Source: Deltaproteobacteria bacterium (lineage in GTDB: Bacteria > Lernaellota > Lernaellaia > JACKCT01). From it: 64,000 bases of DNA. This document shows positions 3,080 through 64,000 of the stretch, one piece after another (the first letter of the stretch is position 1; each line of letters starts with the position of its first letter). The notes below the pieces were generated by a model, which had not been told where the DNA came from, did no database searches, and saw nothing but the letters and a program-made list of their open reading frames with translations. The stretch is from the NCBI GenBank assembly GCA_020845895.1, contig JADLEX010000053.1, positions 86,050 through 150,049 on the forward strand, given 5' to 3'. The position numbers and the translations under genes were made by a program.

Positions 3080-5328
3080 GGCGTATCCTCTACCGCGTCG
3101 TGCCGACGACCGAGACAATCGAGGCAGATCTGCCGGATCGACTTGTTCCAGCTCTTCGAACCGCGCACGAGCGCCTGCACGGCCTCCGCGCCATCGAACC
3201 TCGTCAGGGCGTCGGCGGCGGCGCGCACGACCGTCTCGCTGTGTCGCGACAGAAGTCCGCCATTGACATAAGACCCGAGCGTGGGAATCGCCACTTTGAC
3301 GCGGATTCCGCCGAGGGCTTTGATCGCGAGCAACTCGGCCTGCTCGTCGCCGAAAAACGGCGGCTTCTCCGAGAGCTGTTTCACCAGGAATTCAGCACCC
3401 CGGTGCGAGTCTGTGAAGTGCGCCATGGAGAGAATCGCCTGATGGCGGACCGATGAATCACCATCCCGGACCAGGCGGATGAGGGTTTCAATCGCGGTGC
3501 CGTCTTTGGATACCCCGAGCGCGCGGGCGACTTCCTTGCGCACGCGGACTTCCTGGTGACGAGAGGGTTTGTCGAGGAGTTCCACCATGTCTTCGGGTTT
3601 GAGACGCGCGATCACCGCGACCATATTGCGTACGACGTACCAGAGCGGATGACCGAGGTATCCCGTCGCCTTTTCCACGCACTTGTCGCCGGCCTCGCCG
3701 AGGACGTCGATCAGGATCGCACGCGTCGCCCGGTGGTCCTCGCGGGTGAGCGCGTCGAAGACGGCGTCCCACGCGGCCGGCCCCATCGCCGTCAGGATCC
3801 GCGAAATCGCCGGACTCTCCTCCTTGCCCCACTCGTTGAGAGCACGAACCAGATCGCCAGTCAGTTCGGGCTTCCGGATGCGCACCAAAACGCCACGCGC
3901 CACCCGTTGCGAGAGTTCGTGGTCGTTTTTCTTCGACGCGTGTTTTCTCAGAAGCCGAATCGCGCGGTCGGCGAGCGCATAGCGACCCGTTTCGATGAGA
4001 GTCAGGATCCGCTCGTCCATGCCCAGCGCGTAGAACTCGTAGGCGTCGTTGCCCCGGGCGAGTTCGAGCAAATCGACAAGGTTGTCGGTCGCCCTCTCCT
4101 CCATCACCGGTTCGGCCATCTGGCGCAGGATCTCGGGCATCTCGACGTACATGTTTTCGATGTACTCGTAGATCGGCATCTCGCGGGACACCTGATCGCC
4201 CTGCGTGCCGGAGATCGTCTCGGCGAGCCGTTTCATCCCCGCGCGATCCTGGGGGAGCTGCTGGGCGCGGTTCATCTTCTCGGCGAAGCGCGTGTCGTGG
4301 CGCAGGTCGAAGTCGGCCACGATGCGCCCGATCTCACCCAGAATCTCGGTCTCGTTTCGGGCGTTGACGTAATATTGATAGGTCTTCAGGAACTCGGCGT
4401 CCGACGAATAGTCGGGGTGCAGCCCCTCGAAGAGCGACTGCGCGATCTGGCGCGACCGGTAGGCGGCGAGATGCTCGGCGACCGACTGCCCGAAGATCGT
4501 GCGGTCCAAGTTCGCGTGATCTTTGTCGAGACGCACCGCGTGTTGCATGACGATATAGCGGGTGACCGGGTTGAGGTGGTCGAGCGCGCGCTTCAAATCG
4601 TTTTGAAACACCGCCGCAGCCTCCGCGCCCTCGGCCTGCGAACCGGCGGCGAGCGAACCCATCATCTGAATGAACAGGTCGGCGGTTTTCGACGCCTCCT
4701 CGCGGTCCGCGTCGCGGGCGATCGCGCCGTCGAGGATCGAGGCGAGGCGAGGCGCGTTCTGAATCAGACCGCGCATGAAGTCGAGATCGGCCGCCGAGAT
4801 CTTCTCGTGCGTCGCGGCGAATCCCTTCGAAAGCCGCCTCCAGACCTCGGCATCCGAGAGCGCATCGAGCTTCACCTCGAGGTCGCCATCCGAGATCTTG
4901 TAGTCGATTTCGGTGATTTCGACGGAGGTGATCCCCTTGAGCGCGAGGAGCTTGCGGTATCCACCCGTCTGCCGGGCTTCGAAGGGATCGACATCAAGCG
5001 TGTTCAGAAACGACGCGAGCTCCTGCCGCCCCACGCCCTGGTGGAAAATGATCTGGCTGACGCTATGCTGGTGCAGCGCGCGCGAAAGCGTCGTCACCGC
5101 TTCCTCGCCGACGCGTTCCTCGCCGTCCACATAAAGGCGGTCGTGGCCGACGTTGATGACCATGGCCGGTCGCTGGTGGAAGTACTGTTCAAAATAAAGA
5201 AGAAGCAGGTCGAGCGCGCGGTCTACCGTGGGATGGCCGCTGGGGTACATGTTGTGCTTCTTGATGAGGCGGGCGAAGCCGGAAAGGACCAGACTCGTCG
5301 GCGAATTGCTGTGGAAACTCTGGACCAT
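3076..5328 (-). CDS. HEAT-repeat protein with a shared N-terminal module
   Basis: A 750-residue soluble protein. The N-terminal ~110 residues contain the YPSGHP ... LYVDGEERV module shared with the coupled HD-GYP-like protein. The middle is helical and unassigned. Residues from about 540 to the end contain HEAT-like helical pairs (VRKEVARALG, SVRHQAILSMAHF, VVRAAADALTRF), which usually act as protein-binding scaffolds. Its stop overlaps the next start by 4 nt (ATGA), so the two proteins are probably made in a fixed ratio and may work together. The start is ATG 5328 or the adjacent GTG 5331; a GGGGGA element sits just upstream. No enzymatic motif is seen. Confidence 0.7.
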   Translation of the reverse strand: MVQSFHSNSPTSLVLSGFARLIKKHNMYPSGHPTVDRALDLLLLYFEQYFHQRPAMVINVGHDRLYVDGEERVGEEAVTTLSRALHQHSVSQIIFHQGVGRQELASFLNTLDVDPFEARQTGGYRKLLALKGITSVEITEIDYKISDGDLEVKLDALSDAEVWRRLSKGFAATHEKISAADLDFMRGLIQNAPRLASILDGAIARDADREEASKTADLFIQMMGSLAAGSQAEGAEAAAVFQNDLKRALDHLNPVTRYIVMQHAVRLDKDHANLDRTIFGQSVAEHLAAYRSRQIAQSLFEGLHPDYSSDAEFLKTYQYYVNARNETEILGEIGRIVADFDLRHDTRFAEKMNRAQQLPQDRAGMKRLAETISGTQGDQVSREMPIYEYIENMYVEMPEILRQMAEPVMEERATDNLVDLLELARGNDAYEFYALGMDERILTLIETGRYALADRAIRLLRKHASKKNDHELSQRVARGVLVRIRKPELTGDLVRALNEWGKEESPAISRILTAMGPAAWDAVFDALTREDHRATRAILIDVLGEAGDKCVEKATGYLGHPLWYVVRNMVAVIARLKPEDMVELLDKPSRHQEVRVRKEVARALGVSKDGTAIETLIRLVRDGDSSVRHQAILSMAHFTDSHRGAEFLVKQLSEKPPFFGDEQAELLAIKALGGIRVKVAIPTLGSYVNGGLLSRHSETVVRAAADALTRFDGAEAVQALVRGSKSWNKSIRQICLDCLGRRHDAVEDTP

Positions 5329-52738: not shown

Positions 52739-54592
52739 CTACTTCGAGAACACCACCCACGACGACATCTGAATCGTCGCGCCGCCGGGATACGGTTCGT
52801 CGTTGTAGAGGCCCTCGTAGTCGAAGGTCGCCGTTTCGCCGGCCGTCACCGCCGCGGTGACATCGGTCGTCACGACCTGCACCTCTTTGCCGGGGCACCA
52901 GCCGCTGCGTCCGTACCACCAGGTGCCGAACTGGTTGGGCACGGTTCCTTCGTCCGTCTTGTCCATGCAGTCGGTCGCCGTGCCCGCTTTCGGGAACTCG
53001 ATCACGTACTCCTCGCCGTTGACGAAGAACGTGTGCGCGGTGTCGCAAAACTCTGCGCAGTTGCCGGGGCTCGCGCCGCCGTGGCCGGTGATCATCGTCG
53101 CGAGTTCCACCTTCGCCGCGTCGTTCGGCACATCGATGTCCGTCGGCGTATACGCATCGTTGTAATCGGGATCAAAATCGCCGCCCGCGAACAGGAACAC
53201 GCTCTCGTCGGGCCGTTCGGGTTTGCCCTGATTCGACAGGCGAAGCGTCAGCGTCACGTCGTAAGGCTGCTGCGTATAGAAGGCGAACATGCGCTCGCCG
53301 CCATCCGCGATGAGCGGCAAGAGCGCGCTGACGTCATGCACCCATCGGCCTTCGCGGTGATAGGTCGTGATCCAACGGCCGAACTCCGTGGTGCACGTCG
53401 CTTCGTCGTCGGTGTCGCACAGGTAGAGCCAGTTGATGTAGTCCCACGCGGGGCAGTCACCAAATTCACCATCGCCCACGCACCCCAGGTACAGATCCAG
53501 CTCCGCCGTGTCGAAATCCGCCATCTCGCCGGCGGTCGGCAGCGTGACGGTCGCGTATCCGCGCACCCCCGCCCAGCCGGGATCGGAGAGTTCCTCGTTG
53601 TCGAAAAGCGTGACTTCCGTCGCACCGTCGGCGTCCATGCGATCCGCGCGGTCGGACTCGAAGTTGTAATAGACCGCCTCGTTCGCGGCCATCGACAGAT
53701 TGGGCGCGAACCATCCCACGCCGCCATCGAATCGGTTCTGATCGGCGAAGCTGCCGATGAAGCGAACGCGCTGGAATCGGTCGATCCCGAAGCCGAACCG
53801 GGGGCTCTTCATGTGCTCGCCGGGCCACCCGGCGAGTTCGCGCGCGGTGACGGTCGTGATGAAGTGTATCCGCCGCCGCCAATTCGCCAGGTCCTGCTCC
53901 GAGAACTCCGCAACGTATTCGTCCCACTGCGCGAGCAACGGCTCGAAGGCCGTGTCGCGATCGGCCTGCTCGGTCTGCGTGGCGACGAAAAACGCCTGCG
54001 TGTTGGCGGGCAAGCGGTCCAGAAAGTCCGCGAGGTCGCGCGTCCAGAGCGTGTCCTTGAAACTGTTCTCCTGCGACGGATTGTCCGGGATGACGAGATA
54101 GGTCTCGCAACCGGTCCAGTTCTCCGCGAAATTCCAGTCCCCTTCCGTAGTCGGCACGGTGAAATCCGCGGCGATGGCATAGAGGGCGTCGCTCGCCTCG
54201 GCGGTCTGGAAATCGCGGACGGTCAGTCCGAGATCGTCACACGAGAACTGCGGCTCCGGACCGGTGTCGTCATCGGTCGCGTCGTCGTCCGCGTCGTCAT
54301 CCGTTTCGAGGCCGAGACAATCCTTGAACTCTTCGCAGCCGCCAGCATTCACCGCGCAGTCGATCGCGGCCTGTTCCAAATCGTTTGCGTAGAGCAGGCA
54401 GTCATTCATCGTTTCGATGCCGAGCGCGCCCGCGATTTCGCACTGGGCGATGCGTTCGCAGATTACGACCGGCCAGTCCGCGCCCGAGTCGTCGTCGTCA
54501 TCGCCACCGCCGCCGCCCGAGGAACAACCGATCGCGAAAAAACCGGAAAAGAGACCGAGCATCGCCAATAACAGGAAGCGCGACCACGTCAT
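52739..54592 (-). CDS. PNGase F-like lipoprotein with Asp-rich and Cys-rich regions
   Basis: A 617-residue lipoprotein: lipobox FAIGC, a Gly/Asp tether (SSGGGGGDDDDDSG), a small Cys-rich segment (CERIAQCEIAG ... CEEFKDCLGLE), a second Asp-rich linker, then a large domain. The last ~260 residues resemble the two eight-stranded jelly-roll domains of peptide-N-glycosidase F: LYLGCVG ... CPAWDYINWLYLCD, EFGRWITTYHREGRWVHDVSALLPL, then MITGHG ... CAEFC. PNGase F cleaves N-glycans from Asn; whether the catalytic acids are conserved needs an alignment. Possibly acts on glycoproteins outside the cell. Confidence 0.78.
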   Translation of the reverse strand: MTWSRFLLLAMLGLFSGFFAIGCSSGGGGGDDDDDSGADWPVVICERIAQCEIAGALGIETMNDCLLYANDLEQAAIDCAVNAGGCEEFKDCLGLETDDDADDDATDDDTGPEPQFSCDDLGLTVRDFQTAEASDALYAIAADFTVPTTEGDWNFAENWTGCETYLVIPDNPSQENSFKDTLWTRDLADFLDRLPANTQAFFVATQTEQADRDTAFEPLLAQWDEYVAEFSEQDLANWRRRIHFITTVTARELAGWPGEHMKSPRFGFGIDRFQRVRFIGSFADQNRFDGGVGWFAPNLSMAANEAVYYNFESDRADRMDADGATEVTLFDNEELSDPGWAGVRGYATVTLPTAGEMADFDTAELDLYLGCVGDGEFGDCPAWDYINWLYLCDTDDEATCTTEFGRWITTYHREGRWVHDVSALLPLIADGGERMFAFYTQQPYDVTLTLRLSNQGKPERPDESVFLFAGGDFDPDYNDAYTPTDIDVPNDAAKVELATMITGHGGASPGNCAEFCDTAHTFFVNGEEYVIEFPKAGTATDCMDKTDEGTVPNQFGTWWYGRSGWCPGKEVQVVTTDVTAAVTAGETATFDYEGLYNDEPYPGGATIQMSSWVVFSK

Positions 54593-54748: not shown

Positions 54749-57124
54749 TTAGTTGTGCAACTCGTACACGTCGTATTCCTTGCCGACGCCGTGGCAGAGG
54801 GTGCAGGTCTCGGGACCGTCGATGCCGCCCATCTGCGTGATGTGCGCGAGGCTCGTGTCGCTGTCGTGGCACGCGAAGCACGCGGATGCCGCCGCCTGCA
54901 TGAACTCATCGTCGCCCGGACCCGCCGCGGTGCCCTGATCCATCGTCTGAGAGATGACGGTGGACGCCAGCGGCAGGCCGTAGGTGTTGGGCAGATGGCA
55001 CATGGTGCAGGTCGCCAGGTCGCCCGGGAACACGACTTCGCCGAAGGCGATCGGGTTGCGACCGTAGCCGTACACCAAGTACTCCTCCTGACGCATGTCA
55101 CCGGCGTGGATGGCGTGGATCATGTACTTGAAGTTGATCGACTCGGCGCGCTTGCCGTCGATGCCCAGAGCGTCCGGGTTGTCCCACGTGCCGTCCGCCG
55201 GGGTCGTATCGATCGACGCCGGGCGCTGGCTGATGTCCGTGGAACGCGGGTTGTGGCACGCGAGGCAAACATCGGTGTTGTCGTTGCGGTTGCCGCCGTG
55301 GAGCGACAGCAGATCGTGGCAGGCGTCGCAGTATTCGATCGCAACGACGTTGCGACGCTCTTTGACCGTCGTGTCGGTGATGGCGAAGAATTTCTCGACG
55401 CTCGGAACCACGATACGGTCGGAGTAGGTCAGGTCGCCGTCGATGTCGCCGCAGGGACGCCCGTCGATGAAGACCACGCCGCTGCCGGTGGCGTCGGCCG
55501 GAATGGCCTTGCCGGTGAAGGTGATCGTGTAGGTCCCGTCGCCGTTCGCCACCGACGTGGTGAGCGCGTTGACCGACACCGGCTGCGCCGGAATCGACGT
55601 CGGGTTGATCGTGTTGGTGTAGTCGGTCGTCGGATTCGCGATCTTCATGTTGACCGAACTGCAGCTCGCGGTTGTCCAGATCGGACCGGTCTTGATGTCG
55701 TAAGGCGCATCGCCGTTCGTCGGATCGGTGACCGAGAACTTTACCACGGGCGTTTCGCCGGGGCCGGTGTCGGTCACTTCGAGGATGTTCCACTCAAACC
55801 GGGGCGTCCACGAATCCATCGGAATCGCGTGGTCCTCAACGATGTCGCGGAATCCGGAATTGTGGCAGCTCAGGCAGTTTTCGTCGGTGCCGGTCTGGTC
55901 GCCGAAGTGATCAGAGAAATCCACGGCGTCGTGGCAACCGGCGCAAGCCTGCTTGCGCGGATACTGATAGTAGTTGTCGGCGTCGGCGCCCGTGTGGCAC
56001 TTCGTGCAATTGCGGACGTCCTGCGGCCAGACCACTTCGGAGTAGTCGTGTTCGCTGTTGCTGTTGCCCCAGATCGTATAGCCGTTCGCGAGGTTCGCAC
56101 CGCGGTGGATTTTGTGCGTCATCTCGGCCATGTCGAGGTTGTTGCCCGAGTTGGCATCGACGGTGCCGGGGTTGTGGCACACGACGCAGTATTCGCCCGC
56201 GATGCGTCCGCCGCCGTGCATGGCCAGCTTGGTATGGCAGGTGTTGCACGAGGACATCAAGTAAATTTCGCGAGTCTGGTCGACATCGGTGCCGTCGGGC
56301 ACGAAGTCGAGGATCGCGTTGTCGGTGTTGCCCGTGTACTGCATCGCCACGCGGTGAACGAGCGTCGGGCCATAGGTCACCGGCGGGGTCGTCACGTTGG
56401 AGATGTCCACGGCGAGCTTGTAGGAATACGTGCCGTCGCCGTAGTTCGTGAACAGACCGTTCGCGTTGTTGCACGTCTCGGTCGTGGCCTGGTAGGTCGT
56501 CGTGCCGTCGGGCATCGTGCCGGGTTCGCCCGCCACCTTGTCCTCGACGCGGTAGATGTAGCTCACCCATTGGCCGGACGACGTTTCCGTCGATTCCGTG
56601 AGTTGGGCGATACCGAAACGAACCGAGCTCGACGCCTGATTCGTCACCGGGTTGCCGTCGGCATCGGCGATGGCGAAATAGATGGTCGTCGTCGTCGCGG
56701 CCGCGACATCCGCGACGTCAACGCCGAAGATTTCCGTGTCGCCCGCGAAGTCATAGGGAGAACCCGTGTCGTCGTCGCCGGTGTCGTCGTCGGTCGTATC
56801 GTCGTCGGTCGTATCGTCGTCGGTCGTGTCGTCGTCGGTCGTGTCGTCGTCGGTCGTGTCGTCGTCGGTCGTATCGTCGTCGGTCGTGTCGTCGTCGGTC
56901 GTGTCGTCGTCGGTCGTGTCGTCGTCGACATCGTCGTCCACGTCGTCATCGACATCGTCGTCGTCGGTGCTGTCATCGTCGATGACCTGACCGTCCTGGC
57001 CGGGTTCGCCGTCCGCACCAGCCTTGCCGTCCTTGCCGTCGGCACCCGCGCACGCGAGCAGCCCGGTGGAAAGGGCCAGCGTCAACATGAGAAGAACCAA
57101 GAGCATCGCTTTTCGATATTGCAT
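54749..57124 (-). CDS. OmcA/MtrC-family decahaem c-type cytochrome lipoprotein
   Basis: A 791-residue outer-surface cytochrome. Ten CXXCH haem sites are present: CNTCH, CVVCH, CTKCH, CAGCH, CLSCH, CDACH, CLACH, CTMCH, CFACH, CTLCH. The number and layout match OmcA/MtrC proteins, which pass electrons to extracellular acceptors. The signal peptide ends at lipobox LLAC. Then come about seven collagen-like Gly-X-Y triplets (GADGKDGKAGADGEPGQDG) and an Asp-Thr repeat with nine DDDTT copies before the first beta domain. The ATG at 57124 has GGAGG 6 nt upstream. A near-consensus sigma54 promoter lies 72-87 nt upstream, and the regulator gene is the next gene upstream. Confidence 0.9.
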   Translation of the reverse strand: MQYRKAMLLVLLMLTLALSTGLLACAGADGKDGKAGADGEPGQDGQVIDDDSTDDDDVDDDVDDDVDDDTTDDDTTDDDTTDDDTTDDDTTDDDTTDDDTTDDDTTDDDTTDDDTGDDDTGSPYDFAGDTEIFGVDVADVAAATTTTIYFAIADADGNPVTNQASSSVRFGIAQLTESTETSSGQWVSYIYRVEDKVAGEPGTMPDGTTTYQATTETCNNANGLFTNYGDGTYSYKLAVDISNVTTPPVTYGPTLVHRVAMQYTGNTDNAILDFVPDGTDVDQTREIYLMSSCNTCHTKLAMHGGGRIAGEYCVVCHNPGTVDANSGNNLDMAEMTHKIHRGANLANGYTIWGNSNSEHDYSEVVWPQDVRNCTKCHTGADADNYYQYPRKQACAGCHDAVDFSDHFGDQTGTDENCLSCHNSGFRDIVEDHAIPMDSWTPRFEWNILEVTDTGPGETPVVKFSVTDPTNGDAPYDIKTGPIWTTASCSSVNMKIANPTTDYTNTINPTSIPAQPVSVNALTTSVANGDGTYTITFTGKAIPADATGSGVVFIDGRPCGDIDGDLTYSDRIVVPSVEKFFAITDTTVKERRNVVAIEYCDACHDLLSLHGGNRNDNTDVCLACHNPRSTDISQRPASIDTTPADGTWDNPDALGIDGKRAESINFKYMIHAIHAGDMRQEEYLVYGYGRNPIAFGEVVFPGDLATCTMCHLPNTYGLPLASTVISQTMDQGTAAGPGDDEFMQAAASACFACHDSDTSLAHITQMGGIDGPETCTLCHGVGKEYDVYELHN
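56781..56927 (-). repeat. 15-bp tandem repeat encoding DDDTT
   Basis: Nine full copies of a 15-bp unit (plus-strand GTRTCGTCGTCGGTC, R = G or A) at 56781-56915, with a partial tenth, inside the decahaem gene. Each copy encodes Asp-Asp-Asp-Thr-Thr. The only variation is the G/A third-codon change, so the array looks recently expanded and may vary in length between strains. Confidence 0.92.
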
Positions 57125-57195
57125 TCGCAGCCTCCGAATCGTGTAACGAAAGGGCTTTTTCGCCCCAATGAAGCTCACGCACCACACGCGTAATA

Positions 57196-57211
57196 GGCAA
57201 TTCGCGTGCCA
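57196..57211 (-). promoter_or_regulatory. Sigma54 promoter of the decahaem cytochrome gene
   Basis: On the minus strand 57211-57196 reads TGGCACGCGAATTGCC, matching the consensus TGGCACG-N4-TTGCW at all but the last position, with the required GG-N10-GC. Predicted transcription start is about 57184, leaving a 60-nt leader. Confidence 0.8.
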
Positions 57212-57299
57212 CCGCGCCCGTCCATCGACAGATTTTTCCCTAAGAGAATCAATGGGTTGCGAGTGTTGAAAATTGCGACAGCACGAAAAACGATGTCGT

Positions 57300-57337
57300 G
57301 GTCCGAATCTAAAACCGACCGGTCTGAAAATGAGTCC
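57300..57337. promoter_or_regulatory. Candidate activator sites upstream of the decahaem promoter
   Basis: Two degenerate copies of the 17-bp palindrome seen at 60472 and 60647. GGTCTGAAAATGAGTCC (57321-57337) has 13 of 17 positions as at 60472, and GGTCCGAATCTAAAACC (57300-57316) has 12 of 17. They start exactly 21 bp apart (two helical turns) and their centres lie 111-132 bp upstream of the sigma54 -12 element, as expected for enhancer sites. Confidence 0.5.
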
Positions 57338-57397
57338 GGTTTCGAACCGAATTTCGAAGGAAGAAATCACGAGCGGACGCGGCAGCTCAGGGAGCCG

Positions 57398-58807
57398 TCA
57401 GGGCGTGATGTCGTCGCGGGTCAGTCCGAATCTCTTCATCAGGCGAATGACGTTGGATTTCGCGGTGCCGAGGCGCTCGGCGGCCCGGGAGATGTTCCAG
57501 CCTTCCAGCTCCAGCGCCTCGGTGATGATCTGGCGGTTGAAATCCTCGAGCACTTTTGAACGGATCTCGCTGTACGACCGTCCTTGAGCGAGATAGGCCA
57601 TGTCCCGCGAACCGACATCGCCGGATGACGTGCCCAAGGCGAGAAACGCGGGGAGATCGTCGCGGGTCACCTCGGTCCCTTCGCACATGATGAGCAGATG
57701 CTTCACGAGGTTCTCCACCTCGCGGGCGTTGCCCGGCCAGTCGTAGTTGACCAGAAGCTCCATGATGTCGTCGGGAACCGTGAGGTCATCACGGCCCGAT
57801 CGCTCGCCGTGCTTCTTGATGAAATAGCGCATGAGCACGGGGATATCCTCTCGCCGGTCGCGAAGGGGCGGAACGTGCAATTCGAGCACGCGCAGCCGGA
57901 AATACAGATCCTCGCGGAACCGCCCGGCATCGACCTCGGCCTGCAGATCCTTGTTCGTGGCAGCCAGCACGCGCACGTCCGCGTGCATTTCCTTGAGCGC
58001 GCCGACGGGGCGAACGAAGTGGTCCTGCAGGAAACGCAGGAACTTGACCTGCATCGGCGTGGGAAGCTCGGAAACTTCGTCGAAGAATACCGTGCCGCCG
58101 TCGGCCTCCATGATGAGGCCCTCTTTGTTTGCCACGGCGCTCGTGAACGCGCCTTTGCGGTGGCCAAACAGCTCGCTCTCCATGAGTTGCTCGGGCAGCG
58201 CGCCGCAGTTCACGGCGATGAACCGCTTCTGCCGGCGTGGGCTGGCCAGGTGGATCGCCCGGGCGAACAACTCCTTGCCCGTACCGCTGCCGCCGGTGAT
58301 GAGGATCGCCTCGTCGGACGGCGCCACCCGGTGCGCCATGCGGATCGACCGCTTGAGCGCTTCGCTCGTGCCGACGATGTTTTCGAAGCCCCATTGGTCT
58401 CGAATCTGACTGCGCAGATAACGCACTTCGTCGCGCAGGAGCAGTTTCTCGAAAACGCGGTCGACCGCCTTGACGATGAGATCGGGCTTGATCGGCTTGA
58501 CGATGTAGTCGTCGGCGCCGCGGCGCAGCGCCTCGACCGCGGAGTTGAGATCGGCGTAGGCCGTGATCATCAGCACCGCGGAGTCAGGCTTGAGTTTACG
58601 CACCTCGTCGAGCAGTTCGAATCCGCTCATGCCCGGCATGTTGATGTCGGTGACGACGACGGGATATGGCTGGTCACGAAACAGTTCGAGCGCCCGTTCA
58701 CCGGCTTCCGCCGTGACGATCTCGTATTGCCCGCGAACCAGGCTTCGCTCCAGCACCATACGGGCTCCGGGTTCGTCATCCACCACGAGCACGCGACGTT
58801 CGATCAA
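57398..58807 (-). CDS. Sigma54-dependent NtrC-family response regulator
   Basis: A 469-residue enhancer-binding protein: receiver domain (LVVDDEPGA, phospho-Asp in VVTDINMPG, Lys in IVKPIK), AAA+ domain (Walker A GGSGTGKELFA, sigma54 contact loop ELFGHRKGAFTSA, Walker B GGTVFFDEVSELP, R-finger region) and a Fis-type helix-turn-helix (WNISRAAERLGTAKSNVIRLMKRF). The contact loop reads GAFTSA, not GAFTGA (Ser223). TTG start at 58807 with AAGGAG; 10 nt after the kinase gene, so co-transcribed. It lies between multihaem cytochrome genes that each have a sigma54-type promoter. Confidence 0.95.
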   Translation of the reverse strand: MIERRVLVVDDEPGARMVLERSLVRGQYEIVTAEAGERALELFRDQPYPVVVTDINMPGMSGFELLDEVRKLKPDSAVLMITAYADLNSAVEALRRGADDYIVKPIKPDLIVKAVDRVFEKLLLRDEVRYLRSQIRDQWGFENIVGTSEALKRSIRMAHRVAPSDEAILITGGSGTGKELFARAIHLASPRRQKRFIAVNCGALPEQLMESELFGHRKGAFTSAVANKEGLIMEADGGTVFFDEVSELPTPMQVKFLRFLQDHFVRPVGALKEMHADVRVLAATNKDLQAEVDAGRFREDLYFRLRVLELHVPPLRDRREDIPVLMRYFIKKHGERSGRDDLTVPDDIMELLVNYDWPGNAREVENLVKHLLIMCEGTEVTRDDLPAFLALGTSSGDVGSRDMAYLAQGRSYSEIRSKVLEDFNRQIITEALELEGWNISRAAERLGTAKSNVIRLMKRFGLTRDDITP

Positions 58808-58817
58808 ACGACTCTCC

Positions 58818-60440
58818 TTAGACGGCGGGGCGGATGGCGTCCGCGACGTCGCGTTCGGCGGTCACGGGTAATCGGACCGAGAACGTCGTGCCCTCGCCGA
58901 CCTTGCTGGCGAGCGCAATTTCTCCGCGGTGTTCCTCGACGATCCGGTGGCTGATGGCCAGACCCAGTCCGGTGCCTTCCCGGCCCTTTTTCGTCGTGAA
59001 GAACGGCTCAAAAATGCGCTTTTGCAATTCGTCCGGGATGCCCGAACCGGTGTCTCGCACGTCGAGAACAATGTAGTTCACGTCGTTTCGCCGCTGGGTT
59101 CGCGTCGAAATTGTGATCGTTCCGCCACCGGTCATGGCCTGGCTGGCGTTGATGAGCAGATTCACGATCACCTGCTTGATCTTGTTCTTGTCCATCATTG
59201 ATTCGGGCAATGCCGGGTCGGGCTGAAACTCGCAGGTGATCTTCGACTTGCGCATCTGCACCGCGAGCAGATCAAGCGACTGGCGGGCGAGTTCGTTGAG
59301 CGATTCGAGCGTCAATTCCGGCTCGGAATGTCGTGCGAAGTCCAGCAGGCCCGAGACGATTTTCTGGCAGCGTGTCGCCTCGGATTCGATCAGATGCAAG
59401 TCGTCCGCGATCGCCGCGCCCGGTTCGAGATCCTTGAGGGCGAGATCGACGACCCCGATGATGACGTGGATCGGATTGTTGATCTCGTGCGCGAGCCCCG
59501 ACGCCAGCGTGCCGATCGCGGAGAGCGTCTCGCTGCGTACGAGTCCGTCCTGCGCCGCTTCGAGCTCCTTGCGGACCTGCGCGATGCGTTCCTCCAGAAT
59601 GGCGTTGAACTCCCGCGTCCGCGCCAGCAGCTCCTCGCGTTCTTCCGTGACGCTGCGAATGCTCTCGACCATGCGGTTGAATGTCGTCGCAAGCGTCTCG
59701 AGTTCGTCCTTGGTCTTGATGATGATGGGGTCGGGGTAATGCCCCGCGGACATCTCCCGCGCGGCCCGATCCAAAACCTGGATGGGGCGCAGCAGCAGCA
59801 CCAGCATCCGCGCCACGAAGAAACTGACCAGCAGCAGACCGAGGATCACGACGGCCGTCGTGTTTCGACCGGTGCGTTCCGCCCAAAAACGGTACTGCGC
59901 GACCAGATGGGCTGACATCTTGTCGAATTCGCTCTCGATTTCCCGAGCCTGGGCGACGATCGTGCGCGACAGATAGAGCGCCATCGCCTCCTTCTGCTCG
60001 CGGTGCGCGTCGTCCGGCGCCTCGGCCACTTCCTTCACCTGCTCACGGTACGACGCCATCAGGCTCGTCAGGCTTTCGATCTGCGGCGCCATCACCCTCC
60101 AGTTGTCGTTGCCCGTCTTCGCATGGCAGTCGACGCAGCTCGCGACAATTCCCGGATCCTTCATGTCTGTTCGGACCCGGGAAACCAGGGCGTCCATTTC
60201 GGCGAAATAATTCTCCAGTGCGGTCGAATCGGTTGAAACGCCGAACCGCTGCTCGGACTGATGCTGCTGGATCATCGTTGACAAAAAGAACAATTTGGAA
60301 AAATTCTCGGTATTCGACAGGGAGTAGCCCATCGCCCGCTCGTGCGTGCGCATGCTGGCGATGTGCCGGTAGACGGAAAGCCCGGCCAGCAACAGTACGG
60401 CCAGAATCATTCCGACGTTGAGGGCGATTTTTCGACGCAT
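58818..60440 (-). CDS. Sensor histidine kinase with a periplasmic haem-c motif
   Basis: A 540-residue inner-membrane kinase. TM1 is at residues about 8-25 and TM2 at about 190-212, with a largely helical periplasmic domain between them. That domain contains CVDCH at residues 102-106, a canonical haem-c attachment site. After TM2 come HAMP (LLLRPIQVLDRAAREMSAG), a coiled coil, HisKA with the phospho-His in LAHEINNPIHV, and HATPase (NLLINASQA, DTGSGIP, GREGTGLGLAIS). No PAS domain is seen. With the adjacent regulator it forms a two-component pair; the haem could report redox state, NO, CO or cytochrome maturation. Start ATG 60440. Confidence 0.95.
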   Translation of the reverse strand: MRRKIALNVGMILAVLLLAGLSVYRHIASMRTHERAMGYSLSNTENFSKLFFLSTMIQQHQSEQRFGVSTDSTALENYFAEMDALVSRVRTDMKDPGIVASCVDCHAKTGNDNWRVMAPQIESLTSLMASYREQVKEVAEAPDDAHREQKEAMALYLSRTIVAQAREIESEFDKMSAHLVAQYRFWAERTGRNTTAVVILGLLLVSFFVARMLVLLLRPIQVLDRAAREMSAGHYPDPIIIKTKDELETLATTFNRMVESIRSVTEEREELLARTREFNAILEERIAQVRKELEAAQDGLVRSETLSAIGTLASGLAHEINNPIHVIIGVVDLALKDLEPGAAIADDLHLIESEATRCQKIVSGLLDFARHSEPELTLESLNELARQSLDLLAVQMRKSKITCEFQPDPALPESMMDKNKIKQVIVNLLINASQAMTGGGTITISTRTQRRNDVNYIVLDVRDTGSGIPDELQKRIFEPFFTTKKGREGTGLGLAISHRIVEEHRGEIALASKVGEGTTFSVRLPVTAERDVADAIRPAV

Positions 60441-60442
60441 CC

Positions 60443-60474
60443 CGCGAATCCTCCCGGTCGCGAATCCTCCCGGT
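60443..60474 (-). repeat. Tandem 16-bp duplication containing the kinase ribosome-binding site
   Basis: The plus-strand 16-mer CGCGAATCCTCCCGGT occurs twice in direct succession (60443-60458, 60459-60474). On the minus strand each copy carries GGGAGG. The copy nearest the ATG (60440) is correctly spaced, and the second gives a stand-by Shine-Dalgarno 16 nt upstream. Confidence 0.85.
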
Positions 60475-60488
60475 CTGAATTCGAGACC
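60472..60488. promoter_or_regulatory. 17-bp palindromic operator, copy 1
   Basis: GGTCTGAATTCGAGACC, perfect 5-bp arms. It lies about 32 bp upstream of the kinase start codon, downstream of the predicted kinase transcription start, where binding could give negative autoregulation. Confidence 0.6.
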
Positions 60489-60535
60489 AAAACGCCCCGC
60501 GACGCAAGCCGATCCGCCGATCCGACGCTCAACTC

Positions 60536-60551
60536 AGCAAGAATTGTACCC
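60536..60551 (-). promoter_or_regulatory. Candidate sigma54 promoter of the kinase-regulator operon
   Basis: On the minus strand 60551-60536 reads GGGTACAATTCTTGCT: GG-N10-GC is exact, TTGCT is a full match to TTGCW, and the -24 half matches four of seven consensus positions. Predicted start about 60525. Confidence 0.5.
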
Positions 60552-60646
60552 TTCGTCACTCAGAGATCGGGGCACGGACTGGCCGGTACTCGTCGTGTTT
60601 CCCCTGTCGGGCGAGGATCTGATTTCGTCTCGAATCGCGCGTCCTC

Positions 60647-60663
60647 GGTCTCAATTCCAGACC
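60647..60663. promoter_or_regulatory. 17-bp palindromic operator, copy 2, midway between divergent promoters
   Basis: GGTCTCAATTCCAGACC, identical to copy 1 except at positions 6 and 12, with the arms extending one pair (CGGTCT/AGACCG). Its centre is 115 bp from the -12 GC of the plus promoter and 118 bp from that of the minus promoter, so one bound activator could serve both. Confidence 0.65.
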
Positions 60664-60755
60664 GAACGGACCGCACTTCCGGCGCACGATGCCCGAAGAA
60701 GACCGAAAATTCCCTGAAAATCGGCGGAATTCACGGCTCGGTTTTCCGACCACGA

Positions 60756-60771
60756 TGGTCGAATTTTTGCA
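60756..60771 (+). promoter_or_regulatory. Candidate sigma54 promoter of the multihaem cytochrome genes
   Basis: TGGTCGAATTTTTGCA has exact GG-N10-GC spacing and a full TTGCA -12 half; the -24 half keeps TGG. Predicted start about 60782, 35 nt before the ATG. Confidence 0.6.
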
Positions 60772-60816
60772 TAACCGGGTGGCGGGACGCGAGTCCCTTG
60801 GATTTGAGGAATGAAA

Positions 60817-62838
60817 ATGCGGACTTCCAGGGTTTCGGTTTCGGTCCGGTGGAGCATCGCTTCCACCCCGCGATGGTCAGCACTTCTGATCGGTTTCGCC
60901 TTGGCGATCGGCGCGCCTTCCTACGCTCTCGCCCTGACGAATCAGGACTGCCTCGACTGCCACACGATGGACATGGCCGCCATGTCCGCCGACGACCGCG
61001 CGGGCATGGTCAATGCCGTTCCCGGCGCTGCCCCGTCCAAGGCAGATCCCAAGCTGCTTCAGGTCAAGCCCGAAACCTACGCCAAGAGCGTGCACGGAGC
61101 GTTCGACTGCGTGAATTGCCACGTGGACATCACGGAAGTGCCCCACGCCGCCCGTCTCGCGCCGGTGAACTGCAAAGAATGCCATGCCGAAGTCCAGGCC
61201 GCCTACGACATGGGCATTCATCGCAAGACGCTCGACGCCGGCAACGACAAGGCGGCGACCTGTGCCAAGTGTCACGGAGCACACGATATCCTGCCCTCCG
61301 CCGACCCGGCATCGAAAACAAACAAGAAAAACCTTCCCGACACGTGCGGCAAGTGCCACCTCGCCGATGCGTCCATCGCGGACCACTCGGTCTTCGGCGC
61401 GGGGGCGAGCCCCGTCGAGTCGTACAAGCTGGGAACCCACGCCAAGGCGCTCGCCCGAGGCGTCGACGCCGCCACCTGCAACGATTGCCACGAATCGCAC
61501 GCGCTGCTGCCGATGAGCGATCCGGCTTCGTCGATTTTCAAGATGAACGTGGCGAAGACCTGCGGAAAATGCCACGTCGAGGAATCGAAGGCCTACAACG
61601 AATCGGTTCACGGCCAGGCCCTCGCGCGTGGTGTTTTCGATTCGCCCACGTGCAACGACTGCCATGGCGAGCACGGCATCATCGCCCCGGCGGACCCTGC
61701 GAGCCCGGTCTCCAAAGCGTCGGTGGGGCGCAGCGCGTGCGCCGACTGCCACCGACAGGAACGGCTCTCCCGCCGGTTTGGCCTGGCGTCGAAGCGCGTC
61801 GCGTCCTACGAAGACAGCTTCCACGGACTCGCCAACAAGATGGGCGACACCACGGTCGCCAACTGCGCGTCGTGCCACGGCGTCCACAACATCCTGCCCA
61901 GCAGTGATCCGGCCAGCACCATCCACCCCGAACGCCTGCCCGCCACCTGCGGAAGCTGCCATCCGCGCTTCACGCAGGCCGAGGCGATCGGTCCGGTTCA
62001 CGGCGGCGATGAAGACTCCACCGCCGCGAAAGCCAATTGGTGGGTCCGGTGGTTTTACTACTCGATGATCGTGGGAACGCTGGGCTTCATGTTCGCGCAC
62101 AACTTCATCGACTGGCTGCGCGGCGTGCTGGAAAAGTTGCGGGATCGCAAGAACAAGAAGCTGTACGTTCGGCTCAGCCGAAACGAGCGCTGGATGCACC
62201 TGCTCCTGCTCACGAGCTTCATCACCCTCGCGGTGACGGGCTTCATGCTGGTCTACAACGTCTCCGTCCCCTTCGTCTCGGGCGAACTCTCTCAGAAAAT
62301 TCGCGCCACCGGCCACCGCGTCGCGGCGGTCGCGTTCACGGTTTGGGCGGTGTGGCACGTCGCGTATCTCGTCGGCTCGCGCCGCGGGCGTCGGTGGTTC
62401 ATCGACATGCTGCCGAAGATGGCGGACGCGCGCGACTTCATGGCGCTCATGAAATTCAACCTCGGCATGTCGAAGGTCCGGCCGAAATTCGCGCGATTCA
62501 GCTACATCGAGAAGCTCGAGTACTGGGCCCTGCTGTGGGGCGCGATCGTCATGATGGCGACCGGCGCGGGGTTGTGGTTCAAGAATTTCTTCGCGCCCTA
62601 CCTGCCCTTTTGGGGATTCGACATCGCGACACTGATCCATCTGATGGAGGCGATCCTCGCGTCCGCCGCCATCGTGATCTGGCACTTCTACGCGGTCATG
62701 TTCAAATCCGATGTGCGCCCGATGGCGGTCTGGTGGATCACCGGAACGATGACCGAGGAAGAGATGCACGAGGAACACGCCCTCGAACTGGAGCGACTCC
62801 AGCGCGAGGAAAAATCCAAATCCAAATCGAAACCCTAG
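60817..62838 (+). CDS. CbcL-like fusion: 11-haem c-type domain plus b-type cytochrome membrane domain
   Basis: A 673-residue protein. After a signal peptide/anchor (SALLIGFALAIGAPSYALA), residues about 45-390 carry eleven CXXCH motifs (CLDCH, CVNCH, CKECH, CAKCH, CGKCH, CNDCH, CGKCH, CNDCH, CADCH, CASCH, CGSCH) with distal SVHG/THAK-type histidines. The C-terminal ~270 residues form a membrane domain with paired His in helices (NERWMHLLLL, GHRVAAVAFTVWAVWHV, LIHLMEAI ... WHFYAV), like HydC/FdnI di-haem b subunits. This matches the CbcL design, a menaquinol oxidase passing electrons to periplasmic haems. ATG 60817 fits GAGGA spacing better than ATG 60811. Confidence 0.88.
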   Translation: MRTSRVSVSVRWSIASTPRWSALLIGFALAIGAPSYALALTNQDCLDCHTMDMAAMSADDRAGMVNAVPGAAPSKADPKLLQVKPETYAKSVHGAFDCVNCHVDITEVPHAARLAPVNCKECHAEVQAAYDMGIHRKTLDAGNDKAATCAKCHGAHDILPSADPASKTNKKNLPDTCGKCHLADASIADHSVFGAGASPVESYKLGTHAKALARGVDAATCNDCHESHALLPMSDPASSIFKMNVAKTCGKCHVEESKAYNESVHGQALARGVFDSPTCNDCHGEHGIIAPADPASPVSKASVGRSACADCHRQERLSRRFGLASKRVASYEDSFHGLANKMGDTTVANCASCHGVHNILPSSDPASTIHPERLPATCGSCHPRFTQAEAIGPVHGGDEDSTAAKANWWVRWFYYSMIVGTLGFMFAHNFIDWLRGVLEKLRDRKNKKLYVRLSRNERWMHLLLLTSFITLAVTGFMLVYNVSVPFVSGELSQKIRATGHRVAAVAFTVWAVWHVAYLVGSRRGRRWFIDMLPKMADARDFMALMKFNLGMSKVRPKFARFSYIEKLEYWALLWGAIVMMATGAGLWFKNFFAPYLPFWGFDIATLIHLMEAILASAAIVIWHFYAVMFKSDVRPMAVWWITGTMTEEEMHEEHALELERLQREEKSKSKSKP

Positions 62839-62874
62839 TCCTTTGGGCCTGCTGCTTTGCGGAGGAGGAATCCC

Positions 62875-64000
62875 GTGTCCGAGAAACGCATAACGTCCCG
62901 ATGGATCGCGGCCGGCATCGTCGCCGTCGCGCTCGTCGCGCTGCTCATGCCCGGCGTCGCCTCGGCGCAATCGAAACAGGTGACGCTCGAGGTCACGCTG
63001 CCCGCGCCGATCGTCAAGGAAAAGTGCCTGGAGTGCCACGACGCTCAGGTGAACCTGCTGAAATTCACCAACTCCGTTCACGGCAACAACTCGTGCACCT
63101 CGTGCCACGCCGACATCATTGACGTCGATAAGCACGCGATCGGCGAATTCAAGCCGGGTAAGGTGCAGTGCGGTGCGTGCCACGAGGTCCAGTTCACCGA
63201 GTACAAGGACAGCGTGCACCGCGTGAAGAACGACTTCGAGTGCACAGCCTGCCACACCCCGATCCACGAGGTGGCGAAGTGGAACGGCAAGAAGAAGTCG
63301 ATCATCGAAAAGTGCACCGAGTGCCACGGGAAAGAGGACTACGTCGTCAGCGGTCATGCCGAGGCCGCCCTGCACGGCAACGAAGACGCGCCCGTTTGCT
63401 CCGACTGCCACGGCTTGCACAACACCCGGGCGCTGCACGCCAATATGGAGGCTTTTCCGGAGGAAGCGCGCCTCTTCTACACGCAGACCTGCAAGCGCTG
63501 CCACGGCGACAAGGAGATGATGACGCGCAACGGTCTGCGCACCGACGTGGTGGACACTTACGAACACACCTACCACGGAAAGATTCAGAAGCTCGGCTAC
63601 GCCACGCACGTCGCGGGGTGCGCCGACTGCCACACCACGCACAGCATCAAGCCCAAGGACGACCCGGCCTCGCCCATCCACCCGGACAACCTCGTCAAGA
63701 ACTGCGGCAAGTGCCATGACCACGCGAACGCGAATTTCGTGAAGTTCCGTCCGCACGCCGACTTCCTCGACCGCCACGCGTACCCCGAGCTGTTCTGGAC
63801 CGTGGTGCTTATGTCGGCCCTGCTCCTCGGCACCTTCGTCTTCTTCTGGTTCCACACGCTGCTGTGGTGGCGCAAAACGTATTGGGAGAAGCAGCGACGG
63901 CTCGCAAAGGGCGAGATCCTCGAGGCGGCACAGTTCGACATCGCCAAACCGGGCGAATGGTACGTGCGCTTCAAGCCCATCGCCCGCGTCATGCACATCA
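62875..64000 (+). CDS. Multihaem c-type cytochrome with membrane segment (3' end outside window)
   Basis: An open frame running off the window; 375 residues are visible. The GTG start has GGAGGAGG upstream, 36 nt after the preceding cytochrome gene. It has a signal peptide (VALVALLMPGVASA) and nine CXXCH motifs so far (CLECH, CTSCH, CGACH, CTACH, CTECH, CSDCH, CKRCH, CADCH, CGKCH). A membrane helix near residues 300-325 (LFWTVVLMSALLLGTFVFFWFHTLLWW) carries a histidine, and a cytoplasmic segment follows. Blocks such as DDPASPIHPDNLVKNCGKCH closely resemble the upstream gene, so the two are paralogous in their haem domains. It is probably a partner in the same quinol-to-periplasm route. Confidence 0.88.
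   Translation, partial: MSEKRITSRWIAAGIVAVALVALLMPGVASAQSKQVTLEVTLPAPIVKEKCLECHDAQVNLLKFTNSVHGNNSCTSCHADIIDVDKHAIGEFKPGKVQCGACHEVQFTEYKDSVHRVKNDFECTACHTPIHEVAKWNGKKKSIIEKCTECHGKEDYVVSGHAEAALHGNEDAPVCSDCHGLHNTRALHANMEAFPEEARLFYTQTCKRCHGDKEMMTRNGLRTDVVDTYEHTYHGKIQKLGYATHVAGCADCHTTHSIKPKDDPASPIHPDNLVKNCGKCHDHANANFVKFRPHADFLDRHAYPELFWTVVLMSALLLGTFVFFWFHTLLWWRKTYWEKQRRLAKGEILEAAQFDIAKPGEWYVRFKPIARVMHI

What the first reader, a model, noticed from the sequence alone, without database searches (positions are those of the whole stretch)
54749..64000. Candidate haem-sensing, sigma54-controlled extracellular electron transfer locus
One contiguous block encodes an OmcA/MtrC-type decahaem lipoprotein, an 11-haem c/b fusion cytochrome, a further multihaem cytochrome, a kinase with its own haem-c motif and its sigma54 regulator. 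GG-N10-GC promoters stand before all three transcription units, and a common palindrome lies about 110-135 bp upstream of each. Sensor, regulator, sites and target genes are all visible together. Geobacter has a CbcL cytochrome whose expression depends on an NtrC-type regulator (BccR), but a haem-bearing kinase controlling both inner-membrane and outer-surface cytochromes from shared sites is not something I know as described.
Basis: partly seen in the sequence, partly recalled or inferred. Interest (0 to 1): 0.9.

Follow-up and report, generated by a model that had tools for sequence, protein, structure and literature searches.

The report
Haem-kinase switch for electron-export genes
In a little-known bacterium and two related genera, the same DNA palindrome stands about 100 to 125 bases before predicted promoters of genes for likely inner-membrane, outer-membrane and surface parts of an electron route, so one two-part sensor with a predicted bound haem likely switches that route on and off as a whole.

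Summary
The window encodes a decahaem OmcA/MtrC-type lipoprotein, an NtrC-type regulator, a kinase with one CXXCH, an 11-haem c/b cytochrome and a second c/b-type cytochrome cut by the contig end. Sigma54-like elements precede all three units (1st, 4th, 9th best in 64 kb), with a palindrome (family consensus GGTCTCAAWTTGAGACC) centred 101-118 bp upstream of their -24. A pattern made from the three window sites found the same pairing before two units of an unlinked cluster: a porin-like gene with 12-, 13- and 4-haem cytochromes, and a 17-haem NapC-type cytochrome. Two other genera of the family (phylum Ca. Lernaellota) carry the pairing before most corresponding genes, even where these are unlinked from the regulator. 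Four class relatives lack the sensor and, before their porin and c/b genes, the pairing. The regulator's DNA-reading helix is identical in the three genera. The surface-cytochrome slot is swapped: OmcA-type here, an unrelated 9-haem lipoprotein there. The sensor is predicted to be a four-helix bundle with a c-haem motif and matches no named family. Redox sensing, regulator binding and electron export are inferred; nothing was measured.

The parts
54749..57124 (-). OmcA/MtrC-type decahaem lipoprotein (10 CXXCH, lipobox, Asp/Thr-rich linker)
   Evidence: TIGR03507 476 bits vs cut-off 209; CXXCH count; PDB matches MtrF, OmcA, UndA, MtrC
57196..57211 (-). sigma54-like promoter of the OmcA-type gene, TGGCACGCGAATTGCC
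   Evidence: best of 64 kb, 15.2 bits; 87 bp before the start codon
57321..57337 (.). palindrome (proposed upstream activator site) of the OmcA-type gene; centre 118 bp upstream of the -24 element
   Evidence: same pairing before the surface-cytochrome gene of G002 (L053:10403-10423)
57300..57316 (.). second, degenerate copy of the palindrome, 21 bp from the first
   Evidence: 11.9 bits; a weaker second copy (9.1 bits) lies at the same 21-bp offset in G002
57398..58807 (-). NtrC-type sigma54 response regulator (receiver, AAA+, Fis-type HTH)
   Evidence: orthologues 64-66% identical in G001, G002; helix AERLGTAKSNVIRLMKRF identical in the three genera
58818..60440 (-). histidine kinase with predicted periplasmic four-helix-bundle sensor and one CXXCH (residues 102-106); HAMP, HisKA, HATPase_c
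60472..60488 (.). exact palindrome in the kinase leader, downstream of its promoter (possible feedback operator, inferred)
   Evidence: a site also lies downstream of the sigma54 element of the kinase operon in G001 and G002
60536..60551 (-). sigma54-like promoter of the kinase-regulator operon, GGGTACAATTCTTGCT
   Evidence: 4th best of 64 kb, 11.4 bits
60647..60663 (.). exact palindrome shared by the divergent kinase and c/b cytochrome promoters; centre 104 and 101 bp from their -24 elements
60756..60771 (+). sigma54-like promoter of the c/b cytochrome gene, TGGTCGAATTTTTGCA
   Evidence: 9th best of 64 kb, 10.1 bits
60811..62838 (+). CbcL-like fusion: 11 c-type haem motifs plus cytochrome b561 domain
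   Evidence: relatives in 24 of 60 genomes
62857..63999 (+). second multihaem c/b-type cytochrome, 9 CXXCH before the contig end (likely start GTG at 62875)
   Evidence: 64% identical over residues 59-381 to the gene downstream of the c/b cytochrome in G002, where the region continues into a b-type domain

Best explanation
A kinase carrying a predicted covalent haem in its outward-facing domain and its partner sigma54 regulator likely act as one switch for the layers of a predicted electron-export route, through a palindrome that stands 100-118 bases upstream of five predicted promoters in this genome. Proposed working: the kinase's periplasmic four-helix bundle holds a c-type haem near the membrane; a change of the haem's oxidation state (or ligand) alters autophosphorylation; the phosphorylated NtrC-type regulator binds the palindrome and drives RpoN polymerase at (1) its own kinase-regulator operon, (2) the c/b quinol-oxidase-like cytochromes, (3) the 17-haem NapC-type inner-membrane cytochrome, (4) the porin-cytochrome operon and (5) the surface lipoprotein cytochrome. 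A further palindrome in the kinase leader would damp the loop. Shown by sequence: genes, palindromes, promoter-like elements, spacing and conservation. Inferred: binding, direction of the response, haem attachment, signal, export direction.
For: Pattern from the three window sites, run on the whole genome: of the three best places outside the locus, two (one exact, one with 1 mismatch) stand before sigma54 elements of the porin-type operon and the 17-haem gene on another contig; 20 matches at 12 places vs 4 matches for the reversed control. Matrix trained on the three window sites only: of 10 promoters in G001 and G002 picked by gene position or orthology, 6 have a site at p<=0.005 with the centre 101-125 bp upstream of the -24 (5 distinct sites), 2 are weak (p=0.02, 0.047), 2 have none. 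Sigma54-like elements of 9.99 bits or more before 14 of 15 family genes, and, like for like (porin and c/b genes), before 5 of 6 family genes against 0 of 7 orthologues in G003-G006, best 6.0; those four genomes have no match to the sensor and no clear palindrome excess over the control. A palindrome place in G001 found by pattern fell 110 bp before a sigma54 element and an 8-haem lipoprotein gene. Regulator helix identical in three genera, best-scoring other HTH 45% identical. CXXCH invariant in 5 of 5 sensors. RpoN gene in 7 of 7 genomes.
Against: No expression or binding data. G001's c/b cytochrome promoter and G002's kinase-operon promoter have no upstream site at the expected spacing. The G002 c/b cytochrome element has 9, not 10, spacer bases and scores 3.3. 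Palindromes without an outward sigma54 element at 75-140 bp: 4 of 9 places in G000, 3 of 4 in G001 and 5 of 9 in G002, one of these scoring 24.6 bits; four further 2-mismatch places in G000 also have none within 600 bp. G001's own regulon sites are too divergent for the family consensus to recover. The regulator's GAFTGA loop reads GAFTSA in this genome (GAFTGA in G001 and G002). The AlphaFold models rest on five sequences.
Confidence: 0.72

Rival explanations
1. The regulon is real, but the haem binds a diatomic ligand such as NO or O2 instead of reporting redox state, so the system protects or shuts down electron export rather than tuning it to the acceptor.
For: A preprint abstract reports that c-haem Cache sensors fused to signalling modules have NO-sensor properties (PMC12889525, abstract and one section read). 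[quoted passage not shown]
Against: This sensor matches no Pfam family above its cut-off and is predicted all-helical, so the Cache result does not transfer directly. The Geobacter periplasmic c-haem sensors are described as redox responsive (PMC8396549, passages).
Confidence: 0.3
2. The palindrome belongs to another enhancer-binding protein of the genome, and the kinase-regulator pair is only one of its targets.
For: These genomes hold many NtrC-type regulators: loose first-look candidates 51-121 per genome.
Against: The regulator is encoded between its own sites, its HTH is conserved in exactly the genera that have the sites, and the best-scoring other HTH in the seven genomes is 45% identical.
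Confidence: 0.1
3. The proteins under the palindrome take electrons in, or respire soluble acceptors in the periplasm, rather than exporting electrons to solids.
For: Porin-cytochrome modules can run either way (recalled), and no substrate is known here.
Against: OmcA/MtrC-type decahaem lipoprotein plus c/b and NapC-type cytochromes fit outward respiration (inference).
Confidence: 0.15
4. Chance motifs: GG-N10-GC elements and short palindromes are common and the reader joined unrelated ones.
For: 71 positions reach 7 bits in 64 kb.
Against: Cross-genus tests and the unlinked cluster; random centres have a sigma54 element >=10 bits at 75-140 bp in 330 of 20000 trials.
Confidence: 0.03

Closest known systems
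sigma54 control of multihaem electron-transfer genes (DVU3142 with ohcBAC in Desulfovibrio; RpoN regulon of Geobacter sulfurreducens)
   Same: An enhancer-binding protein with predicted sites and sigma54 promoters before a multihaem cytochrome complex (PMC4641369, section 10 read); cytochromes for Fe(III) reduction lie in the Geobacter RpoN regulon (PMC2725144, passages).
   Different: In what I read, the first concerns one membrane complex and the second names no single site and sensor. Here one site joins inner-membrane, periplasmic, outer-membrane and surface genes, next to a kinase with a c-haem motif.
Periplasmic c-type haem sensors: GSU0582/GSU0935, DcrA, Anaeromyxobacter Adeh_0923/2011/3383, Tll0287/DUF3365 (sCache_heme)
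   Same: c-type haem motif in the periplasmic domain of a signalling protein (PMC8396549 passages; PMC3831638 passages; PMC12889525 abstract and one section).
   Different: Those are described as PAS-like or Cache folds; this sensor is predicted all-helical and matches no such family. GSU0582, GSU0935 and DcrA are chemotaxis proteins, not kinases.
MsmS (MA4561) of Methanosarcina acetivorans
   Same: A sensor kinase of a two-component system with a c-type haem (PMC8396549, passage).
   Different: Regulates methyl sulfide methyltransferases; domain type, phylum and targets differ. Not compared by sequence here.
CbcL and other inner-membrane quinol oxidases of Geobacter
   Same: Multihaem c-type domain fused to a b-type membrane domain here; CbcL is a bc-type complex that oxidises menaquinol at low potential (PMC12307469, passages).
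   Different: 11 c-type motifs here; no direct comparison with the Geobacter protein was run.
OmcA/MtrC family and porin-cytochrome conduits
   Same: TIGR03507 member; a porin-like protein with 12- and 13-haem partners.
   Different: The porin-like protein matches no Pfam, NCBIfam or PDB entry; the two clusters lie on separate contigs joined only by the shared sites.

Membership tests
OmcA/MtrC decahaem family (TIGR03507) | score above the curated cut-off | tested here: met
   476 vs 209 bits
OmcA/MtrC decahaem family (TIGR03507) | ten CXXCH and a lipoprotein signal | tested here: met
   10 motifs; LSTGLLAC lipobox read by eye in the translation
OmcA/MtrC decahaem family (TIGR03507) | exposure on the cell surface | not testable with these tools
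   needs protease or antibody tests
NtrC-type enhancer-binding response regulators | receiver, AAA+ sigma54 and Fis-type HTH domains | tested here: met
   PF00072, PF00158, PF02954 above cut-off
NtrC-type enhancer-binding response regulators | GAFTGA loop for sigma54 contact | tested here: inconclusive
   GAFTSA here, GAFTGA in G001 and G002
sigma54 promoters | GG-N10-GC elements, with rpoN in the genome | tested here: met
   transcription start not testable
CbcL-type inner-membrane c/b cytochromes | multihaem c domain plus b-type membrane domain | tested here: met
   11 CXXCH and PF01292 39.5 vs 30.1 bits
CbcL-type inner-membrane c/b cytochromes | orthology to Geobacter CbcL | not tested
   the homologue search listed 120 of 7841 matches, none named CbcL
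DUF3365/Tll0287 (sCache_heme) sensors | match to the Pfam family | tested here: not met
   no such match among families at E<=5 for three sensor domains, within HMMER's filters
PAS-type c-haem sensors (GSU0582/GSU0935) | PAS fold with beta sheet | tested here: not met
   model all-helical, pLDDT 83, pTM 0.78; a prediction from five sequences
four-helix-bundle sensor domains (LytS-N, MCP ligand-binding domains, Adeh_2942) | up-down four-helix bundle | tested here: inconclusive
BccR (Geobacter) | sequence and target identity | not testable with these tools
   no paper on it among those found or listed

The most novel reading that the evidence does not exclude
A new class of c-type-haem four-helix-bundle kinase is the redox master switch of a whole transenvelope electron-export chain: one palindrome wires quinol oxidation, periplasmic relay, outer-membrane conduit and surface cytochrome to the cell's own respiratory haem state, and evolution swaps the surface cytochrome while keeping the switch.
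Probability: 0.4. Interest if true: 0.82.

Novelty: new variant of a known kind. Interest (0 to 1): 0.64.

Why it matters
How bacteria that breathe onto solids decide when to build each layer of their electron chain is poorly known; a 2025 review of Geobacter says that regulation of multihaem nanowires is little known and that regulatory and functional redundancy among cytochromes hampers assigning roles (PMC12307469, passages). Here sensor, regulator, site and targets can all be named from sequence, giving a short list of DNA fragments and proteins to test in vitro without culturing the organism. The site also predicts which cytochromes of a little-studied phylum belong to one electron route although the genes are scattered, and shows the surface cytochrome being exchanged under an unchanged promoter design. 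A c-haem kinase would extend a small group: a 2021 review says few two-component systems with c-type haem are known (PMC8396549, passage).

Tried and rejected
Rejected: chance pairing of motifs (failed against cross-genus and outgroup tests). Rejected: a DUF3365/Cache or PAS haem sensor. Dropped: the label 'OmcA' for the surface-cytochrome genes of G001 and G002, used as a working name in scripts; they are 58% identical to each other and share with the window gene only weak matches around haem motifs.

Foldseek on the whole kinase: the 50 rows shown are matches to histidine kinases or their kinase parts. BccR. The sensor search in 5.8 billion proteins gave 3 proteins, one being the window's own, and with the G001 sensor 1 (itself), so depth stays at five sequences.

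Limits of the statistics: the sigma54 weights are recalled, not fitted. Gene starts used were chosen by eye or as longest frames, also for the outgroups. I had seen the sites before tabulated them. The G002 NrfD-type promoter was included after seeing its sites, so it is left out of the 10-promoter test. The background contains the true sites, which makes its p-values larger. The consensus was built from sites that it then recovers; among promoter sites only the C56 place in G001 is new there. The G002 c/b cytochrome element was picked by resemblance. Sigma54-like elements of 10.4 and 10.9 bits lie near the porin genes of G003 and G004 but on the opposite strand.
Full report
What is there. The window is the last 64 kb of contig C53 of a 4.98-Mb genome. 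Its phylum holds seven genomes here. One class relative, G004, has contig C3 of 304501 bases; a c/b cytochrome deposited as Candidatus Lernaella stagnicola lies on a contig of that same length, so the phylum is taken to be Ca. Lernaellota (lineage). The locus encodes, on the minus strand, kinase, regulator and a decahaem OmcA/MtrC-type lipoprotein, and on the plus strand an 11-haem c/b cytochrome and a second c/b-type cytochrome cut by the contig end.

Promoters and palindromes. The three sigma54-like elements rank 1st, 4th and 9th over both strands of the window. The palindrome is exact at 60472-60488 and 60647-60663 and has one mismatch at 57321-57337; only one other place in 64 kb is as good as the last. 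Site centres lie 118, 104 and 101 bp upstream of the -24 elements of the OmcA-type, kinase and c/b cytochrome promoters; the last two share a site.

The regulon reaches an unlinked cluster. A pattern made from the three window sites, run over the whole genome with up to two mismatches, gave 20 matches at 12 places against 4 matches for the reversed control. Outside the locus the three best places were C106:23627, C106:28399 and C15:13121. The first two precede sigma54 elements (site centres 110 and 100 bp from the -24), in front of a 17-haem NapC/NirT-type cytochrome and of an operon with a porin-like protein and 12-, 13- and 4-haem cytochromes. C15 and the six other places outside the locus have no sigma54 element of 9 bits or more within 600 bp. 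The porin-like protein has a signal-peptide-like start but no Pfam, NCBIfam or PDB match, so 'porin' is a reading of its sequence and neighbours.

Two other genera. A matrix trained on the window sites alone was used on promoters of G001 and G002. In G001 the c/b cytochrome and the regulator lie on different contigs; in G002 they are about 14 kb apart. Of 10 promoters chosen by gene position or orthology, 6 have a site at p<=0.005 (G001 17-haem and porin; G002 surface cytochrome, 17-haem, c/b cytochrome and porin; G002 17-haem and c/b share one site), 2 are weak (G001 surface cytochrome p=0.02; G001 kinase p=0.047) and 2 have none (G001 c/b cytochrome; G002 kinase operon). An eleventh, the G002 FeS/NrfD/8-haem module (Hmc-like), has tandem sites and p=0.0037 but was picked after seeing them. 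In G001 a palindrome found by pattern at C56:10924 lies 110 bp before a 13.9-bit sigma54 element and an 8-haem lipoprotein gene.

Controls. Upstream of porin and c/b cytochrome orthologues in G003-G006, 0 of 7 regions reach 9.99 bits for sigma54 (best 6.0), against 5 of 6 such regions in the family and 14 of 15 family regions of all kinds; palindrome scores reach 10.0 and 10.7 in two of the seven, below the 12.1 maximum of 54 kb of window background. No porin orthologue was found in G006. The relaxed consensus occurs at 9, 4 and 9 places in G000, G001 and G002 (reversed control 0, 1, 1) and at 2, 3, 0 and 0 in G003-G006 (control 1, 3, 0, 0). Of the 22 family places, 10 have an outward sigma54 element 75-140 bp away (one of these elements lies inside the kinase gene, so 9 are credible): 5 of 9 in G000, 1 of 4 in G001, 4 of 9 in G002; against 0 of 5 outgroup places and 330 of 20000 random centres. 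Two of the five G002 places without one lie in the kinase-operon leader and at the start of the c/b cytochrome gene. That consensus was built partly from the same sites, so the figure shows consistency, not an independent test. G001's own regulon sites diverge from the consensus and are not recovered by it.

Who binds. The regulator's HTH helix AERLGTAKSNVIRLMKRF is identical in the three genera although the proteins are 64-66% identical overall. The best-scoring other HTH in the seven genomes is 45% identical. Sensor, site excess and this HTH share one distribution: 3 of 7 genomes. RpoN is encoded in 7 of 7.

The sensor. The kinase has two hydrophobic stretches (residues 5-23 and 197-215) around a predicted periplasmic domain. 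AlphaFold predicts a four-helix bundle with the CXXCH on an extra short helix between helices 2 and 3, which by topology is the membrane-proximal side (pLDDT 83, pTM 0.78, five sequences). C102, C105, H106 and H178 are invariant in 5 of 5; H106 would be the proximal ligand, H178 a candidate distal one (inferred). No Pfam family reaches its cut-off. In G002 a PhnD-type binding protein gene, broken in the assembly, precedes the kinase, which suggests a further periplasmic input there.

Feedback. A palindrome also lies downstream of the sigma54 element of the kinase operon in G000 (60472-60488), G001 (L052:6973-6993, 12.1 bits) and G002 (L053:14373-14389, one mismatch to GGTCT-N7-AGACC). A site there could block or damp transcription; this is inference.

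Swapped surface protein. TIGR03507 exceeds its cut-off in 1 of 7 genomes, this one. The gene in the same slot of G001 and G002 encodes a 9-haem lipoprotein with a PKD-like domain, 58% identical between them; in G000 it has matches only to its first 155 or so residues, the Asp-rich region. The promoter design is kept while the gene product differs, the palindrome being weak in G001.

Known or new. Sigma54 regulators of single multihaem complexes are predicted in Desulfovibrio (PMC4641369, section 10), and cytochromes belong to the Geobacter RpoN regulon (PMC2725144, passages). Periplasmic c-haem sensors are known with PAS/Cache folds, and one c-haem sensor kinase, MsmS, in an archaeon. I saw no paper joining a c-haem kinase, a sigma54 regulator and a transenvelope cytochrome regulon in the listings (one search listed 20 of 330, 10 of 4,180, 12 of 24, 8 of 53); the library lacks most subscription papers, so this is a limited statement. 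The parts are of known kinds; the combination and the predicted sensor fold are a new variant.

Noticed in passing
L185:5262-5282 (G002:C9:49263): The strongest palindrome outside the regulon in G002 (24.6 bits) lies at the start of a small gene next to a possible RES-type gene (name by eye), with no sigma54 element >=10 bits in the 10-kb locus.
   Followed up: partly
window 56765-56927: Tandem array of 15-bp units (10.9 copies, 94% matches) encoding the Asp/Thr-rich linker of the OmcA-type lipoprotein; Asp-rich N-terminal regions of this kind match many proteins in six of the seven genomes.
   Followed up: partly
window 60443-60475: A 16-bp unit repeated exactly (2.1 copies) just upstream of the kinase start codon, overlapping the leader palindrome.
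   Followed up: no
L053:13501-14432: PhnD-type periplasmic binding protein gene, broken by frame changes in the assembly, directly upstream of the c-haem kinase in G002.
   Followed up: partly
window 52739-54592: Lipoprotein-like protein with a peptide-N-glycosidase F C-terminal domain (PF09113), beside the electron-transfer locus.
   Followed up: no
L075:8738-10717 and 3926-4948: A Nitrospirae kinase with one CXXCH near a 9-haem cytochrome gene; possibly a second, unrelated c-haem kinase beside a multihaem gene.
   Followed up: no
L168:11749-14297: Hmc-like FeS/NrfD/8-haem module in G002 beside the porin cluster, with tandem palindromes and its own sigma54 element.
   Followed up: partly
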